DNA from: Promethearchaeota archaeon
GTDB lineage: Archaea; Asgardarchaeota; Lokiarchaeia; Sigynarchaeales; SOKP01
DNA length: 8,453 bases
Assembly: GCA_030620005.1 (NCBI GenBank)
Contig: JAUXAJ010000236.1
Span: forward strand, 1-8,453
Direction of reading: 5' to 3'
Below, in pieces: positions 1 through 8,160 of this stretch (positions within the stretch are counted from its first letter, which is position 1; each line of letters starts with the position of its first letter). The notes below the pieces were generated by a model that did not search any database, was not told where the DNA came from, and saw only the letters and a list, made by a program, of their open reading frames with translations. Both the position numbers and the translations under genes were made by a program.

Positions 1-128
1 GAATAAATCGCTATCCACTGCTCATCTTTATCTCGTTCAATTGTCAAGTTAGCTAATACATTGCTTACAACAGATCCTGAATACCCTTTTCTGGACAGTG
101 TATCTTGTCTTTTCTTTTTAATTTGCAT
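1..128 (-). CDS. Possible 5' end of an unidentified gene running off the left edge
   Basis: On the minus strand an ATG at 128-126 opens a frame of 42 codons that is still open at base 1. The translation begins MQIKKKRQDTLSRKGYSG and later contains ERDKDEQWIAIY. The mix of charged and hydrophobic residues looks like a soluble protein rather than a random AT-rich frame. I do not recognise the family. The frame overlaps the beginning of the isomerase fragment on the other strand (recognisable homology there starts near base 115-125), so the two may meet at a rearrangement breakpoint. No well-placed TATA box is visible: the TTATAATC motif upstream is too close to the ATG. The alternative is that this is chance antisense coding. 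I hold it as a weak candidate because only 42 codons are visible. Confidence 0.35.
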   Translation of the reverse strand, partial: MQIKKKRQDTLSRKGYSGSVVSNVLANLTIERDKDEQWIAIY

Positions 129-707
129 GCTAAAGATTATAAGGTCATTTTTTCAATGCCATATTCAAAAAATCTTGAAGGGTGCGTGGGGTTATTTGTC
201 CAAGAAATTTCTGAAAGCACAGGAAAAGAGAAAAAAGGATTAATGGGCGCTTACCAATCCGCCCCTCTTTGCCAACATTCAGTGTTAGAATATCTCTTAG
301 GTGGAACTAAGGGTGTCGTTATCCCAATACTATGGACAATTGATAAAGAATATCCAGATTTAGTATTAGACTCTTCAATAAATCACATTAACGGTCGCAC
401 AGCACAAAGTATCGTAAATTATCAGGCAGATGCGACATTTCAAGCATTAATTGAGCAAGAAGTGCCTTCAGCTAAAATCTTGATTGAGAAAGCCGATGAA
501 AATTCGATCGGAAATTTAATCGCATTCATTCAATCTACTATTTATTATCTATGCTTGTTATTGAACGTTAATTGGGCGAACAACCCTAAAGTTGTTATCG
601 GAAAAAAAATTTGCAATGAAGCTCTTAAAAAAGAGTCATCGTTAGAAGAAAGAGAAAAAATAAGAAACACAATTGCTGGAGAAAAATTTAAAGATTTCTT
701 TCTCTAA
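105..707 (+). CDS. pgi: Glucose-6-phosphate isomerase, C-terminal half only
   Basis: Phosphoglucose isomerase interconverts glucose 6-phosphate and fructose 6-phosphate in the cytoplasm. The 200 residues match the C-terminal sugar-isomerase (SIS) lobe of the family. Visible landmarks are PYS (19-21), the SESTGK segment carrying the conserved glutamate (E37), QHS with the catalytic-type histidine (H58), and a late GKK (K167/K168) at the place of the conserved lysine. The family is usually 400-560 residues, so the N-terminal lobe is absent. The frame is open only from base 81 (TGA at 78-80) and the first ATG is at 105. The other plus frame just upstream contains DPEYPFLDSVSCL, which could be the preceding segment after a frameshift. 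The fragment is therefore either a frameshifted gene, a sequencing error, or a 5'-truncated remnant. Without the N-terminal lobe it should not be active alone. Its stop lies one base from the stop of the convergent aspartate kinase. Confidence 0.75.
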   Translation: MSFLFNLHAKDYKVIFSMPYSKNLEGCVGLFVQEISESTGKEKKGLMGAYQSAPLCQHSVLEYLLGGTKGVVIPILWTIDKEYPDLVLDSSINHINGRTAQSIVNYQADATFQALIEQEVPSAKILIEKADENSIGNLIAFIQSTIYYLCLLLNVNWANNPKVVIGKKICNEALKKESSLEEREKIRNTIAGEKFKDFFL

Positions 708-2806: not shown

Positions 2807-3142
2807 ATGAATGGTCTAAATTCAAATATAAAAAGTGAAAAGAAAAAAAATACTCTCTTTTTAATTTGGCTAATTTTAATAATGCTTACTTGGATTTTTG
2901 GAACTAAAGTTTCTGAAATGTTGTTAGATTTTATTCAAGAATTATCATTTGAGGAAATACAATTAGCAGAATCTCTTTTTAGTTATACAATTGCTTTAAC
3001 AATTTTATTTTGGGGTTATCTTGTAGATCGTTTTAGTGAAAAAAGAAAAATCATTTTAGTATTTTGTTCAATTTTATGGATATGTGCAAGCTTCAGTTTA
3101 TTTTTTGCTTCAATTAACATAACGGTAATACAATATAAGTGA
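2807..3142 (+). pseudogene. MFS transporter, N-terminal fragment (first three membrane helices)
   Basis: The frame encodes 111 residues with a charged N-terminus and three hydrophobic segments at about 16-32, 56-73 and 82-101. Between the second and third helices it has GYLVDRFSEKRK (70-81), the motif A loop diagnostic of major facilitator superfamily transporters. A full transporter has 12 helices and about 400 residues, so roughly a quarter is present. After TGA at 3140 a related segment continues in another frame (to 3371), which points to an internal deletion with frameshift rather than a natural short protein. The start and upstream AT-only region look intact, so a short membrane peptide might still be made. 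The substrate cannot be inferred. Confidence 0.7.
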
Positions 3143-3685: not shown

Positions 3686-4216
3686 TTATTCTTCCAAGTT
3701 TTTTCTGAAATTATTTAATATAACTTTTTTTAGATCATCATTATTGTATTTAGCTTTAATAACTATTCTTGATTCTCTATTTCCAATAAAATTAATACGA
3801 TTTTTTGGGCTTAATATCGCCTTATTGTTTATTCTACTTGGAAATGATTTTGATACAATAATTGGAAAAAAATCCCAATCCAATGTTCTCAAAATATTTC
3901 TATGTTCAAGAATATTGAAAATCTGATCCTTTAGAAAACTAATGCAACTTTCTATTTGACTTTTCGCATGTGTGAATGAATGGCTTGGACTTTTTAATTC
4001 AACAATGCTTATTGCAAATAAATTATTCTTATTAAGAAAACTAAAAATGATACAATCACATTTTGTTCCATCATTTCTACTTTCTCTTTCCAGGCGAACA
4101 ATGAGAAATCTATCATCCCTTAAATTTCCTAATTTAAATTTACCAATCCCTCTTTCACGACATTCTGTATCAATCAAATTGTTGAAATTTGTTTCAATAT
4201 ATTCAAGAATTTCCAT
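3686..4216 (-). CDS. Predicted PD-(D/E)XK-like nuclease partner of the upstream ATPase
   Basis: A 176-residue protein with no membrane segment or signal. Its centre reads KCDCIIFSF, a short loop, then ISIVELKSP, followed by a helix AKSQIESCISFL. The spacing D54...E73-x-K75 with Q87 in the next helix matches the core of PD-(D/E)XK restriction-like nucleases: acidic residue in one strand, E-x-K in the next, then a helix. This is a pattern-based prediction; the fold has members without catalytic activity. The gene follows the ATPase on the same strand: the ATPase stop is 10 bases before this ATG, and GTGAT across that stop can serve as ribosome binding site. A TTG at 4225 would extend it by three residues, but ATG is preferred. 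Tight coupling suggests the two proteins form one complex, as in two-gene ATPase-nuclease anti-virus systems. Confidence 0.6.
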   Translation of the reverse strand: MEILEYIETNFNNLIDTECRERGIGKFKLGNLRDDRFLIVRLERESRNDGTKCDCIIFSFLNKNNLFAISIVELKSPSHSFTHAKSQIESCISFLKDQIFNILEHRNILRTLDWDFFPIIVSKSFPSRINNKAILSPKNRINFIGNRESRIVIKAKYNNDDLKKVILNNFRKNLEE

Positions 4217-4226
4217 AGAAATCAAA

Positions 4227-5777
4227 TCACTGTTTATCTATAACTGTGGATTCTCCATATAATTGATCTGTCAGCTGAGCAAAATGGTCTTCATCTATCC
4301 CAAATTCTGTGGTTTCTAGGTCCTCAGTAGAGATACCATGCATATTCTCATCATACTTGAATAGAAAAGTGTTTACTTCTTCGTGTTTTATAAAATCATT
4401 TTTATCATAATTTAAACTTGTTCTTAACTTTGGGGTTTTTTTACTAAGTCTGATAAAATTATTTAATTGTAATATTAAGAAATCACTGTGTGTGGTGATT
4501 AAAACTTTCAAGCCCGCTCTAATTAATTTTACTATAAACTGAGCAAATATTCTTTGGGCATCGGGATGTAAATGTGCTTCTGGTTCTTCTATAATAATAA
4601 AACATTTTCTATCTATTATATGTTTAAAATATAAAACAATTGGTGCAAGCTCAGAGATCATTGAGGAAGCTCGATATAAAGGTATTTCTCCTTCATCTGT
4701 TATATACATTATCTCAGAAGCCACGCCATTTTCATAAGAGATATACTTGATTTTACCCTTTGTAAGCTTTTCTTCAAGAAAATCAACGAGATTTTTATAT
4801 TTTACTTTTTTTCTACCAATTTCAATGATTTTAACAAGGAAATCAGAAATTATACCTGAAAGTGTAGGAATATTTATTGGATCAATTAATGCTCTTGATG
4901 ATAAGCGATAAAAAGCAGAGGATATTGCTTTTTGCCCTTGAATTAGCCCCGCTCTTGTAGCAGGAAGATAATAAAAAATTCTACTTGGAATTAATTGCAA
5001 TTTTTTTCTTATTCCAGCTAGACAAATTCCGATCATCCCATCAAGGATCTCCATCGATGAAAATTCTAAATCCATTTTTTTAGAAAATTTGAAATTATCG
5101 CTGATCTCAAAGGTTGAACTTTTATATCTTAAGAAAAATTTTTGATCTCTTTTTAATAATTTCTTAGACATATAAATAGTAGGTATTTCAATCTTGAATG
5201 ATTTTGAAATTATTTTTTTTTCATCACATTCAAGAACGATTTCAATTTCCTCAGATTTTATTGTGACCTTAAAGCATTCTTTGCCGAATTTAGTAAGTTC
5301 TTTTAAAGTACAAGCATAAATTCTCTTGAATTCATTTGTTAAATTATCTAATATGTATAACTTAATACTTTTCATGAATTCATTATGAAAATTTTCGATA
5401 ATATCCTTAGGTATTTCTATTTCTTTACCACTTTTAAGCTGCTCTTGATTTTTTTTCAAAATGTTCATAATATCTCCAAATATGCTTTCTAAATCAATTT
5501 TAGATAGAAATCTTCTGTTTCTAATAAGTCTCCCTTCACCTTCTTCATAGTATGATTCAAAATATGATTCAAAATTCAATCGTCTTCTAAGACTATAAGT
5601 AGAACTACTAAAAATAGGTATTCTACTTAAAGTTCTTAATAATTGATATATTAACATAGCAGCATAGGATTTTCCAGTATTATTCGGGCCTATAAAGATA
5701 GTTAAATCATTAAGGTTTAATTTTGAATAACTTATTGGTCCGAAATTCTCAATTTCGATTATAATTTTACTGTCCAT
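4227..5777 (-). CDS. AAA/ABC-type ATPase of the OLD/RecF-like family, likely defence system sensor
   Basis: The 516 residues form one SMC/ABC-like ATPase. The N-terminal strand pattern IEIENFGPIS leads to Walker A GPNNTGKS (30-37). A long middle insertion follows (about 50-260, charged and helical). Then comes the YLPATRAGL segment (270-278) seen in AAA_15/AAA_21-type proteins, a signature-like SSMISELAP (371-379), Walker B FIIIEEPEAHLHP (393-405) with paired glutamates, and the H-loop TTHSD (428-432). There is no TOPRIM nuclease domain after the ATPase as in true OLD or GajA proteins. The nuclease role is presumably supplied by the downstream gene, which begins 10 bases after this stop. By family precedent (PARIS AriA, Septu PtuA, Gabija GajA) such ATPases act in phage or plasmid restriction, but the exact family cannot be fixed by eye. 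The ATG at 5777 is preceded by AAGGGATTG, a partial ribosome binding site. Confidence 0.88.
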   Translation of the reverse strand: MDSKIIIEIENFGPISYSKLNLNDLTIFIGPNNTGKSYAAMLIYQLLRTLSRIPIFSSSTYSLRRRLNFESYFESYYEEGEGRLIRNRRFLSKIDLESIFGDIMNILKKNQEQLKSGKEIEIPKDIIENFHNEFMKSIKLYILDNLTNEFKRIYACTLKELTKFGKECFKVTIKSEEIEIVLECDEKKIISKSFKIEIPTIYMSKKLLKRDQKFFLRYKSSTFEISDNFKFSKKMDLEFSSMEILDGMIGICLAGIRKKLQLIPSRIFYYLPATRAGLIQGQKAISSAFYRLSSRALIDPINIPTLSGIISDFLVKIIEIGRKKVKYKNLVDFLEEKLTKGKIKYISYENGVASEIMYITDEGEIPLYRASSMISELAPIVLYFKHIIDRKCFIIIEEPEAHLHPDAQRIFAQFIVKLIRAGLKVLITTHSDFLILQLNNFIRLSKKTPKLRTSLNYDKNDFIKHEEVNTFLFKYDENMHGISTEDLETTEFGIDEDHFAQLTDQLYGESTVIDKQ

Positions 5778-6291: not shown

Positions 6292-7344
6292 TCATTTATT
6301 CCAATCTTTAAATTGTGCGCTCAACATTTTGATGAAGGTGTCAACATCAGAATTTATTTGAAATGTGTCTTCGTCTGGAAATTCCCCTTCAACTTTTCCC
6401 TCACCAATTAATTCGTAAATCAACAAGAGCATTTTTTCTTGCTCGATATCTAAAACTATTTCAATATCAGAAAATATTAGTTTCTTATACGCTTTAATCA
6501 TGCTGAATATTTCGATTTTATTTCTTTCATAAATATCCTCTTCCGTTTCAAATTCTTCAAAATCTACGATGCGGTCAGCGTGATAAAACATGGGGCAGTC
6601 GTGAGGGTAGATTTTACACGCGAATTTTCTTATCGTATCACGTAGTTCATACTTGTCTCCTAGGGACCCGTAAGGGCAATAATATAACCTTTCGCACGGC
6701 TTATTAAACTTTGTCCTGTTGATCACGTGTTTATCGTTAAAGAACGGGATGTTTCTCAAGTTATCTTTCAGTTTAGGGTTAGGTGGAGGGGGAGCTTGAC
6801 GGTCATCCTCTATTACATCTTCAGACACGTAAAAAACGGGACAATCATGGTCGAAGGTGTAGCAAACAGTTTTATCTGAACTCCCACCTATTTGAAAAGC
6901 TTCAACGAGCGCTCCATAAGGGCACCAATTTAACTTTAGACACGGTTTATAAGCGTCTTCTTGAACGACCACGCCTTTATTGAAAAACTTTTCTGGGTCT
7001 CTACTTTCTATGTCGTACTGGTAGCATTTCACGCAGTACCATTTTTTCCACTTCGGGTGAAACACCATATCGCTTTTATCTTGATTGCAAAGGGCGCACA
7101 AGCATATAGATTTTTTAAGCCGAGCACGAAGTTTTTGTTTTTTTCCTATCAAAGACCGAATCCTCCTATTTTCCTTATAGGTGCGCTGTCTTGGTTGCCC
7201 TTCAGAGTCATATCGAATGTTTTCTTCCTCTTGTCTAAGCGCTTTCATTCTAGCGTATGTCTCGCTGATAATAACGCGTCTCAAGTTATTTCTAATTTTT
7301 TGCAGGCGAGGATCTTTTATGGATACAATTCTCCCGGGCTTCAC
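6292..7344 (-). CDS. Cysteine-rich zinc-binding protein with zinc ribbon, duplicated CPYG/HDCP modules and helical tail
   Basis: A 350-residue soluble protein of unknown function. Order of parts: basic coiled-coil-like N-terminus (10-80); a zinc ribbon with CxC-x2-C (81, 83, 86) and YC-VKC (104, 107); module 1 with KPC (135), CPYG (141-144), C161 and HDCPVFYVSE (166-175); a proline-rich linker (184-190); module 2 with KPC (217), CPYG (223-226), C243 and HDCPMFYH (248-255); an acidic linker; and a C-terminal helical segment (285-350) with IYELIGEGKVEGEF, resembling a winged-helix/PCI-like tail. The CPYG...HDCPVF pattern recurs in uncharacterised archaeal proteins, each copy giving four likely metal ligands. 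The GTG start at 7344 is chosen because GGGGTGAT lies nine bases upstream. No ATG precedes it in frame. DNA or RNA binding is plausible from the architecture but not shown. Confidence 0.75.
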   Translation of the reverse strand: MKPGRIVSIKDPRLQKIRNNLRRVIISETYARMKALRQEEENIRYDSEGQPRQRTYKENRRIRSLIGKKQKLRARLKKSICLCALCNQDKSDMVFHPKWKKWYCVKCYQYDIESRDPEKFFNKGVVVQEDAYKPCLKLNWCPYGALVEAFQIGGSSDKTVCYTFDHDCPVFYVSEDVIEDDRQAPPPPNPKLKDNLRNIPFFNDKHVINRTKFNKPCERLYYCPYGSLGDKYELRDTIRKFACKIYPHDCPMFYHADRIVDFEEFETEEDIYERNKIEIFSMIKAYKKLIFSDIEIVLDIEQEKMLLLIYELIGEGKVEGEFPDEDTFQINSDVDTFIKMLSAQFKDWNK

Positions 7345-7389: not shown

Positions 7390-7500
7390 GTAAGTGGCCC
7401 ATTAGTCGCTTCATATTTAGGAGATATTTTTCAGGTTGAAAACCGTGGGAAATTGTTTTCAGTTTTTACAATATTTGTTTATATTATTAAAGGTTCAAAT
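7390..7500 (+). pseudogene. MFS-like segment preceding and in frame with the zinc-finger gene
   Basis: After TAA at 7387 the plus strand is open in the same frame as the finger protein. The first residues read SGPLVASYLGDIFQVENRGK, then LFSVFTIFVYIIKG. The GPL...GD...RGK pattern followed by a hydrophobic helix is characteristic of helix 4 to loop 4/5 of major facilitator transporters. There is no ATG in this stretch. It looks like the 5' part of the finger reading frame came from transporter DNA by rearrangement. The similarity ends near base 7500. This is exactly the part of the transporter missing from the fragment at 2807-3142. Confidence 0.4.
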
Positions 7501-8160
7501 ATTGAATTCACACAAAATTTTGGGGAGAATCCTAATCTATGTCCTATTAAAGAATGTGTTTATAAAAGCAAAAACAAAGCTCATATAATAACACATCTTG
7601 CATTAAAACTAATTATTGGCGTGCAATGGCATGAATGCCCTCATTGTGAATATAAAGCCAAGCGAAAATCAATATTATTAAAACATATTGCAGGTAAGCA
7701 TGATATTGGTGTGCAATGGCATTATTGTCCTCATTGTAAATTTAAAGCCAAGCGAAAATTCACTTTAAAAAGTCATATTGCAGGTAAGCATGATATTGAC
7801 GTGCAATGGCATTTTTGTCCTCATTGTGTCCATAAATCCAAGCGAAAATCATCATTAATGAAACATATTGCTGATAAGCATGATATTGGTGTGCAATGGC
7901 ATGAATGTCCTCATTGTAAATTTAAAGCCAAGCGAAAATCCACTTTAAAGAATCATCTTGCAAACATACATAATATTAACGTGCAATGGCAGGAATGCCC
8001 TCATTGTGAGTATAAAACCAAACTAAAATCCACTTTAAAGAATCATCTTGCAAACATACATAATATTAGCGTGCAATGGCAGGAATGCCCTCATTGTGAG
8101 TATAAAGCCAAACAAAAAGGAAATTTAACAACTCATTTAAAGGGAAAACATAATATTTAA
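7453..8160 (+). CDS. Tandem C2H2 zinc-finger protein (six regular fingers plus one degenerate)
   Basis: From a TTG start the frame gives 235 residues; the frame itself is open from 7390 and contains no ATG before the fingers. Residues 30-55 form a degenerate finger (C-x4-C, then H44 and H48, with the last histidine position replaced by leucine). Six regular fingers follow from residue 57, one every 30 residues. Each is C-x2-C-x12-H-x4-H with CPHC at the turn and a basic YKAKRKSxLxxH helix. They are joined by the unusual linker DIGVQWHE instead of the TGEKP type of eukaryotic transcription factors. Arrays like this normally bind nucleic acid. Single fingers are common in archaea; a seven-finger array is not. 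The N-terminal 15 or so residues look derived from an MFS transporter, so the true start and expression are uncertain. Codon content is as AT-rich as the neighbours. Confidence 0.72.
   Translation: MFSVFTIFVYIIKGSNIEFTQNFGENPNLCPIKECVYKSKNKAHIITHLALKLIIGVQWHECPHCEYKAKRKSILLKHIAGKHDIGVQWHYCPHCKFKAKRKFTLKSHIAGKHDIDVQWHFCPHCVHKSKRKSSLMKHIADKHDIGVQWHECPHCKFKAKRKSTLKNHLANIHNINVQWQECPHCEYKTKLKSTLKNHLANIHNISVQWQECPHCEYKAKQKGNLTTHLKGKHNI
7621..8157 (+). repeat. Six tandem 90-base units encoding zinc fingers
   Basis: Units begin at 7621, 7711, 7801, 7891, 7981 and 8071, each starting GTGCAATGGCA apart from changes at the last base or after it. The period is exactly 90 bases (30 codons). Units 5 and 6 share almost identical first halves, and units 4 and 5 share an identical stretch around ACTTTAAAGAATCATCTTGC, pointing to recent internal duplication or recombination at the 3' end of the array. 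Confidence 0.95.

What the first reader, a model, noticed from the sequence alone, without database searches (positions are those of the whole stretch)
3686..5777. Two-gene ATPase plus PD-(D/E)XK-like nuclease operon, a candidate undescribed defence system
An OLD/RecF-like ATPase lacking its own nuclease domain is followed, 10 bases later, by a 176-residue protein with D54...E73-x-K75-x11-Q87. Known ATPase-nuclease pairs use TOPRIM (Gabija GajA, PARIS AriB) or HNH (Septu PtuB) effectors; a short stand-alone PD-(D/E)XK-like partner is different. It sits in a stretch of broken genes, as defence modules often do. Seen: motifs and gene spacing. Inferred: nuclease activity and defence role.
Basis: partly seen in the sequence, partly recalled or inferred. 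Interest (0 to 1): 0.7.

Follow-up and report, generated by a model that had tools for sequence, protein, structure and literature searches.

The report
ATPase–nuclease defence pair, Asgard-like archaeon
A two-gene ATPase plus small nuclease unit, probably an anti-virus device, sits in what looks like an archaeal genome fragment; the pair is real and widely conserved, but it belongs to a class of bacterial defence systems (PD-T4-4 and WonAB) that has already been described.

Summary
In detail: on the minus strand an OLD-type ATPase (516 aa) is followed 10 bases later by a 176-aa protein with D54…E73-x-K75. The pairing is conserved: a profile from the window's nuclease and five close relatives gave 37 hits at E<=0.01 among 4,055 ORFs in 81 ATPase loci, and 37 of 37 lay directly downstream of the ATPase. 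In 227 genomes of the Loki_b31 phylum, 9 of 10 nuclease matches follow such an ATPase. From 62 sequences AlphaFold gives a confident model (pLDDT 88.7); its best structural neighbours are mostly PD-(D/E)XK nucleases, though Z stays under 8. In the partners of 73 loci, D54 is kept in 72, E73 in 72, K75 in 62. The claim 'undescribed' is wrong: WonAB (2025, activity shown) and PD-T4-4 (2022, found by phage selection) have this architecture, and the window ATPase's best PADLOC model is PD-T4-4_A (5e-43). The window nuclease does not match PD-T4-4_B directly: a divergent archaeal member of a known kind. New detail: a four-cysteine signature, two of them lost together in the window's clade. Defence is inferred; 2 of 20 neighbours scanned were defence-like.

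The parts
4227..5777 (-). OLD-family ABC-type ATPase (516 aa): Walker A GPNNTGKS at residues 30-37, R275, SSMISE signature-like stretch 371-376, Walker B ending IIEEPEAHLHP with E397/E398, H-loop with H430; 86 residues after H430, no TOPRIM match (motif names recalled)
   Evidence: Pfam AAA_15 7.2e-30; PADLOC PD-T4-4_A 5e-43, PDC-M47A 5.8e-31; invariant columns in 25 aligned sequences, window included
3686..4216 (-). PD-(D/E)XK-type nuclease (176 aa), D54, E73, K75, Q87; probable effector
4217..4226 (-). 10-base spacer between ATPase stop and nuclease ATG (operon)
   Evidence: sequence; in related loci the mechanical gap is mostly between -47 and +20 bases, with exceptions such as +118 at L019

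Best explanation
The pair is a divergent archaeal member of the known class 'OLD-ABC ATPase sensor + small PD-(D/E)XK nuclease effector' (PD-T4-4 / PDC-M47 / WonAB-like). The ATPase probably dimerises with ATP and holds the nuclease through its C-terminal extension; its fast-changing stretches after Walker A (residues about 60-150 and 211-270) may sense an infection signal. On infection the nuclease is switched on and cuts nucleic acid, stopping growth before virus release (abortive infection); by analogy to WonB the target may be tRNA or rRNA rather than DNA. Shown here: gene pair, conserved partnership, predicted fold, active-site residues, relation to PD-T4-4. Inferred: complex, trigger, substrate, defence.
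For: Window-clade nuclease profile: 37 of 37 hits at E<=0.01 among 4,055 ORFs (at least 70 aa, stop to stop, six frames) of 81 ATPase loci are the ORF directly after the ATPase. In 227 genomes of the Loki_b31 phylum 9 of 10 nuclease matches follow an ATPase of this type (2 of the 10 are copies already in the query alignment); 5 of 6 ATPase matches at E<=1e-30 are followed by the nuclease, the sixth reaches its contig end. ATPase and nuclease distances correlate over 73 pairs (Spearman 0.752; 0 of 1,000 shuffles reach it, maximum 0.193). Best PADLOC model of the ATPase is PD-T4-4_A. Reference PD-T4-4-type nucleases align to the nuclease profile over the CD...(D/E)xK core (hhalign probability 94.6%). 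WonAB protects against phage and needs both genes.
Confidence: 0.72

Rival explanations
1. A DNA-targeting restriction-like pair: the ATPase loads the nuclease on invading DNA, which it degrades, without killing the host.
For: Structural neighbours include DNA restriction enzymes (Bse634I, Nt.BspD6I, FokI, BamHI) and the CRISPR-associated Can2, Cdn1 and Card1; nothing here separates DNA from RNA as substrate.
Against: WonB left genomic DNA intact and stopped translation. No modification gene was recognised among the window ORFs scanned.
Confidence: 0.3
2. A toxin-antitoxin or addiction pair that maintains a mobile element, with defence as a by-product or absent.
For: Two tightly linked genes, patchy distribution (nuclease match in 8 of 227 genomes), PD-T4-4-type pairs on plasmids and a phage.
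Against: In WonAB the ATPase is needed for nuclease toxicity, which the authors take as against simple sequestration. The window ATPase keeps the ATP-binding and hydrolysis motifs.
Confidence: 0.12
3. A cellular DNA-repair or recombination pair (RecF/SbcC-like ATPase with a nuclease), not defence.
For: 18 of 20 neighbours scanned were not defence-like by Pfam; OLD/RecF ATPases are kin of repair proteins (recalled).
Against: Patchy occurrence, a variable stretch of the ATPase beside a conserved core, and best PADLOC models that are defence or candidate-defence families (the library holds only such models).
Confidence: 0.08

Closest known systems
PD-T4-4 (Vassallo et al. 2022, E. coli)
   Same: Two genes in the same order, PF13175-type ATPase then PD-(D/E)XK nuclease; the window ATPase's best PADLOC model is PD-T4-4_A; the nuclease core aligns at profile level.
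   Different: The four reference nucleases fetched are 206-210 aa, the window's 176 aa with no direct PD-T4-4_B match. In the 15 plasmid rows listed, tblastn of the ATPase covers 25-32% of it at 31-35% identity.
WonAB and 'OLD-ABC ATPase + Novel REase' (PMC12137116; Krishnan et al. 2020 known here only through that paper and PMC12409358)
   Same: OLD-ABC ATPase, C-terminal extension, small PD-(D/E)xK protein (WonB 16.1 kDa) in one operon; both genes needed for defence.
   Different: WonAB sequences were not fetched or compared; host and probable viruses differ.
PDC-M47 and PDC-M29 (PADLOC candidate systems)
   Same: ATPase matches PDC-M47A 5.8e-31; nuclease relatives match PDC-M47B (best 1.2e-7; up to 8 of 40 members for one model) and the window nuclease matches PDC-M29B 6.8e-4.
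   Different: The window nuclease does not match PDC-M47B directly; no paper in the library names PDC-M47.
Gabija, PARIS, Septu, OLD
   Same: OLD-related ATPase core (AriA 7.8e-33, Old 4.3e-15, GajA 1.9e-13).
   Different: Their effectors are TOPRIM or HNH nucleases (recalled, and as stated in the finding); here it is PD-(D/E)XK-like.

Membership tests
OLD-ABC ATPase + PD-(D/E)XK nuclease class (PD-T4-4 / WonAB-like) | OLD-type ABC ATPase without TOPRIM | tested here: met
   Pfam AAA_15/AAA_21, no TOPRIM among matches at E<=1; PADLOC PD-T4-4_A 5e-43
OLD-ABC ATPase + PD-(D/E)XK nuclease class (PD-T4-4 / WonAB-like) | Small PD-(D/E)XK partner directly downstream | tested here: met
OLD-ABC ATPase + PD-(D/E)XK nuclease class (PD-T4-4 / WonAB-like) | Conserved co-occurrence of the two genes | tested here: met
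   37 of 37 hits adjacent; 9 of 10 matches in 227 genomes
OLD-ABC ATPase + PD-(D/E)XK nuclease class (PD-T4-4 / WonAB-like) | Anti-phage activity needing both genes | not testable with these tools
   shown for WonAB in print, not for this pair
PD-T4-4 in the strict sense | Nuclease matches the PD-T4-4_B model | tested here: not met
   no PD-T4-4_B match for the window protein at E<=1; 4, 4 and 1 of 40 aligned proteins match the three PD-T4-4_B models listed at E<=0.01; profile-profile probability 94.6% over the core. So not filed as PD-T4-4 itself.
WonAB in the strict sense | Sequence homology to WonA and WonB | not tested
   WonAB sequences were not fetched
Gabija / PARIS / OLD | TOPRIM nuclease, fused or as partner | tested here: not met
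   no TOPRIM among Pfam matches of either protein at E<=1; partner has PD-(D/E)XK motif and topology
Septu | HNH partner PtuB | tested here: not met
   no HNH or PtuB match of the partner at E<=1

The most novel reading that the evidence does not exclude
The short nuclease is a separate, mostly environmental branch of the PD-T4-4/WonAB effectors marked by four conserved cysteines (C19, C25, C53 next to the catalytic D54, C155), perhaps a zinc site or a redox switch beside the active site; the window's clade has lost C25 and C155 together (7 of 7 rows) and so runs without it. In Asgard-type archaea it may act as an RNA-cutting abortive-infection system, which would be a compact, two-gene archaeal immune device not yet tested there.
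Probability: 0.3. Interest if true: 0.5.

Novelty: new member of a known kind. Interest (0 to 1): 0.33.

Why it matters
It extends a recently shown bacterial anti-phage class (OLD-ABC ATPase + PD-(D/E)XK nuclease) to Asgard-type and other archaea with a strict gene partnership, and shows a divergent effector branch in which at least 31 of 40 proteins have no PD-T4-4_B match at E<=0.01. If active, it would be a compact, testable archaeal immune system. It is not a new kind of system.

Tried and rejected
AlphaFold with only six sequences gave pLDDT 46 and was discarded; the 62-row alignment A5 gave the usable model. Sequence searches of solved structures found nothing for the nuclease and only rows at E 0.19 or worse, unrelated by name, for its alignment. 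Foldseek against PDB and viral libraries gave no match at E<=0.001. A viral-contig scan with the nuclease found none; one with the ATPase gave 15 loci, of which only L081 was analysed further; the other 14 had weaker, mostly partial matches. Rfam (gathering threshold) and tRNA scans of the window were empty.

Rows dropped and circularity. From the 40-row partner alignment A3, 9 rows (L007, L013, L016, L028, L032, L040, L042, L061, L081) were left out of A4 as wrong frame, odd ends or too divergent, so 'D54, E73, K75 invariant' in A4 is partly selection. A5 took back L013 and L016; it holds partners of 44 of the 81 loci and leaves out 5 short hits (P0138-P0142). For that reason I recounted on all 73 loci with an adjacent partner: K75 is then 62 of 73. 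A4 was built from 26 of the 81 loci, so its 73 of 81 adjacency count is partly circular; A1 holds none of these loci and its 37 of 37 is the clean count ('directly downstream' means that the stop-to-stop ORF begins between 400 bases before and 200 after the ATPase stop and ends beyond it). At E above 0.01 A1 also hits non-adjacent ORFs, the first at E 0.015. Eight loci had no adjacent A4 hit: L054 and L057 end 2 and 197 bases after the ATPase; L015, L069 and L072 have a match that overlaps or lies further on; L064, L065 and L071 have none. In the 227-genome search two matches (G001, G002) are the genomes of L001 and L037, whose nucleases are rows of the query A5, so 7 of 8 is the count without them; the tenth match (G106, E 4e-4, a 324-aa frame) has no such ATPase beside it and may be chance. 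In one search five loci were excluded by name (cut or broken genes) and short partners by length; the 73 pairs are the window, four database pairs that I matched by equal contig length, and 68 loci.

Defence-island argument: dropped. I chose 20 neighbours at 12 of the 14 loci laid out and scanned them with Pfam only; a Type ISP restriction-modification enzyme (L017) and a SIR2-like protein (L031) were defence-like, 3 of 20 had no match at E<=1e-5. A PADLOC scan of neighbours was not run.

Literature: PDC-M47 gave no paper in the library; PD-T4-4 is in 3 papers, WonAB in 2; Krishnan et al. 2020 is not held, and the PADLOC candidate preprint is not held (no preprints in the library). What I saw: sections 7, 8, 9 and passages of PMC12137116; section 6 and passages of PMC9519451; passages only of PMC10952713, PMC12988326, PMC12409358 and PMC10568477. 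I did not read the individual activity data of PD-T4-4.

Full report
What is there. On the minus strand, an ORF of 516 aa (5777..4227) ends 10 bases before the ATG of a 176-aa ORF (4216..3686). The first is an OLD-type ABC ATPase: Pfam AAA_15 at 7.2e-30; best PADLOC model PD-T4-4_A at 5e-43, then AriA 7.8e-33 and PDC-M47A 5.8e-31. Walker A, an arginine (R275), a signature-like SSMISE, Walker B with two glutamates and the H-loop histidine are in place and lie in columns invariant or nearly so in 25 aligned sequences, the window's included (motif names recalled). No TOPRIM is among its Pfam matches at E<=1. The second protein has no Pfam match above cut-off (best Endonuc_Holl, E 0.071, residues 49-96 of the 179-aa form) and a weak PADLOC match, PDC-M29B 6.8e-4.

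Is the pairing real? Four of five close relatives of the nuclease (P0001, P0002, P0004, P0005) have an ATPase counterpart (P0006-P0009) whose longest contig has the same length, so they probably lie together. Eighty loci that encode an ATPase relative were fetched from species genomes, and one more came from a viral contig. A profile made only from the window's nuclease and its five relatives was run over 4,055 ORFs of at least 70 aa in these 81 loci: 37 hits at E<=0.01, and 37 of 37 are the ORF directly downstream of the ATPase. A wider profile, built from 26 of the same loci and so partly circular, finds an adjacent partner in 73 of 81. In 227 genomes of the phylum of Loki_b31 (the genome of L001), the nuclease alignment gives 10 matches in 8 genomes; 9 of the 10 follow an ATPase found by the ATPase profile on the same strand (7 of 8 without the two that are rows of the query). 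From the ATPase side, 5 of 6 matches at E<=1e-30 are followed by the nuclease and the sixth reaches its contig end. Over 73 pairs the pairwise distances of the two proteins correlate (Spearman 0.752; none of 1,000 shuffles reaches it, maximum 0.193); common descent of the whole unit explains this as well as contact does. By record title the loci come from Lokiarchaeota, Argoarchaeum, Methanosarcinales, Thermofilales and Micrarchaeota archaea and from Poribacteria, Chloroflexi, Nitrospirae, Lentzea and Pseudonocardia among others; most are metagenome-assembled genomes.

What is known. PD-T4-4 comes from a functional selection in E. coli against phage (PMC9519451, section 6 and passages). A review table lists it under PF13175 and under the PD(D/E)XK family PF11645 (PMC10952713, passages). 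WonAB of Vibrio cholerae is an OLD-ABC ATPase plus a variant PD-(D/E)xK nuclease; both genes are needed, WonB K71A and WonA ATPase mutants lose protection, WonB is predicted to bind the dimerised C-terminal extensions of WonA, and WonB overproduction stops translation without degrading chromosomal DNA; the authors name PD-T4-4 and the in-silico 'OLD-ABC ATPase + Novel REase' operon as similar and propose a larger family of ABC-ATPase sensors paired with nuclease effectors (PMC12137116, sections 7-9). So the claim of a different, undescribed pair is not right. Of 40 nuclease relatives scanned, up to 8 match one PDC-M47B model, and 4, 4 and 1 match three PD-T4-4_B models. Four reference PD-T4-4-type nucleases from three plasmids and a phage, all matching PD-T4-4_B at 1e-12 or better, align to the nuclease profile over the CD...(D/E)xK core (domain scores 14-21 bits in a set of six; hhalign probability 94.6%, with L081's partner also in the template set). 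The window protein itself does not reach PD-T4-4_B at E<=1, so I file it in the wider class and not as PD-T4-4.

What is different. Most adjacent ORFs in the loci are 150-176 aa as mechanically called, against 206-210 aa for the four reference nucleases. Four cysteines recur: in A5, C19 in 57, C25 in 55, C53 in 56 and C155 in 55 of 62 rows, all four in 44; in the 73 loci, 59, 68, 66 and 61 (gaps counted as absent). The seven A5 rows of the window's clade have lost C25 and C155 together and kept C19 and C53, while C19 alone is lost in 5 other rows and C53 alone in 6. The joint loss may mean that C25 and C155 are in contact; a zinc site or disulphide is inference. The ATPase varies most at residues 61-120: against P0006 identity is 60-67% there and 97-100% in most blocks from 271 to 450, while the nuclease is 98% identical to its counterpart P0001. 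That would fit a sensor under pressure to change; dN/dS was not computed.

What argues against defence. Of 20 neighbouring proteins at 12 loci, 2 looked defence-like by Pfam: a Type ISP restriction-modification enzyme at L017 and a SIR2-like protein at L031; 3 had no match and the other 15 were enzymes, transporters or signalling and other proteins. In the window the neighbours are an amino-acid-kinase/ACT protein of aspartokinase type, a dCMP-deaminase-like gene, an MFS fragment, a cysteine-rich protein and a C2H2 zinc-finger ORF. The patchy spread and the defence families as nearest models still favour defence, but PADLOC holds only defence models. A survey of archaeal immunity says that Asgard genomes are enriched in restriction-modification, viperins, CBASS and argonautes and poor in most candidate systems (PMC12988326, passages).

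Verdict. Observation confirmed; interpretation partly supported; a divergent archaeal member of a known kind. The host of the window is inferred as an Asgard archaeon near Loki_b31 from the nearest named relatives of the ATPase; no genome is held for it.

Noticed in passing
window 7453-8160 (+): ORF of 235 aa made of repeated C2H2-type zinc fingers (Pfam zf-H2C2_5 6.6e-17), which strikes me as unusual for an archaeon.
   Followed up: no
window 6292-7344 (-): 350-aa protein of unknown family with two cysteine-rich repeats of the kind 'C...CPYG...HDCP.FY'; no Pfam match above cut-off.
   Followed up: no
window 2807-3142 (+) and 105-707 (+): Possible remnants: an MFS transporter cut after 111 aa, and a weak phosphoglucose-isomerase-like piece (E 0.015, below cut-off).
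   Followed up: partly
window nuclease residues 19, 25, 53, 155 (alignment A5): Four conserved cysteines in most relatives, two of them lost together in the window's clade.
   Followed up: partly
L016, L020, L023, L058 (ExD) and L032, L040, L042, L080 (ExT): Partners in which the catalytic lysine is replaced by D or T; also Q in L061 and E in L019. Active site may be altered or lost.
   Followed up: no
   Followed up: no
L114 (Vibrio phage 1.202.O), 2155-4186: A PD-T4-4-type pair lies in a Peduoviridae phage between the CI repressor gene and a gene annotated as DNA breaking-rejoining enzyme.
   Followed up: partly
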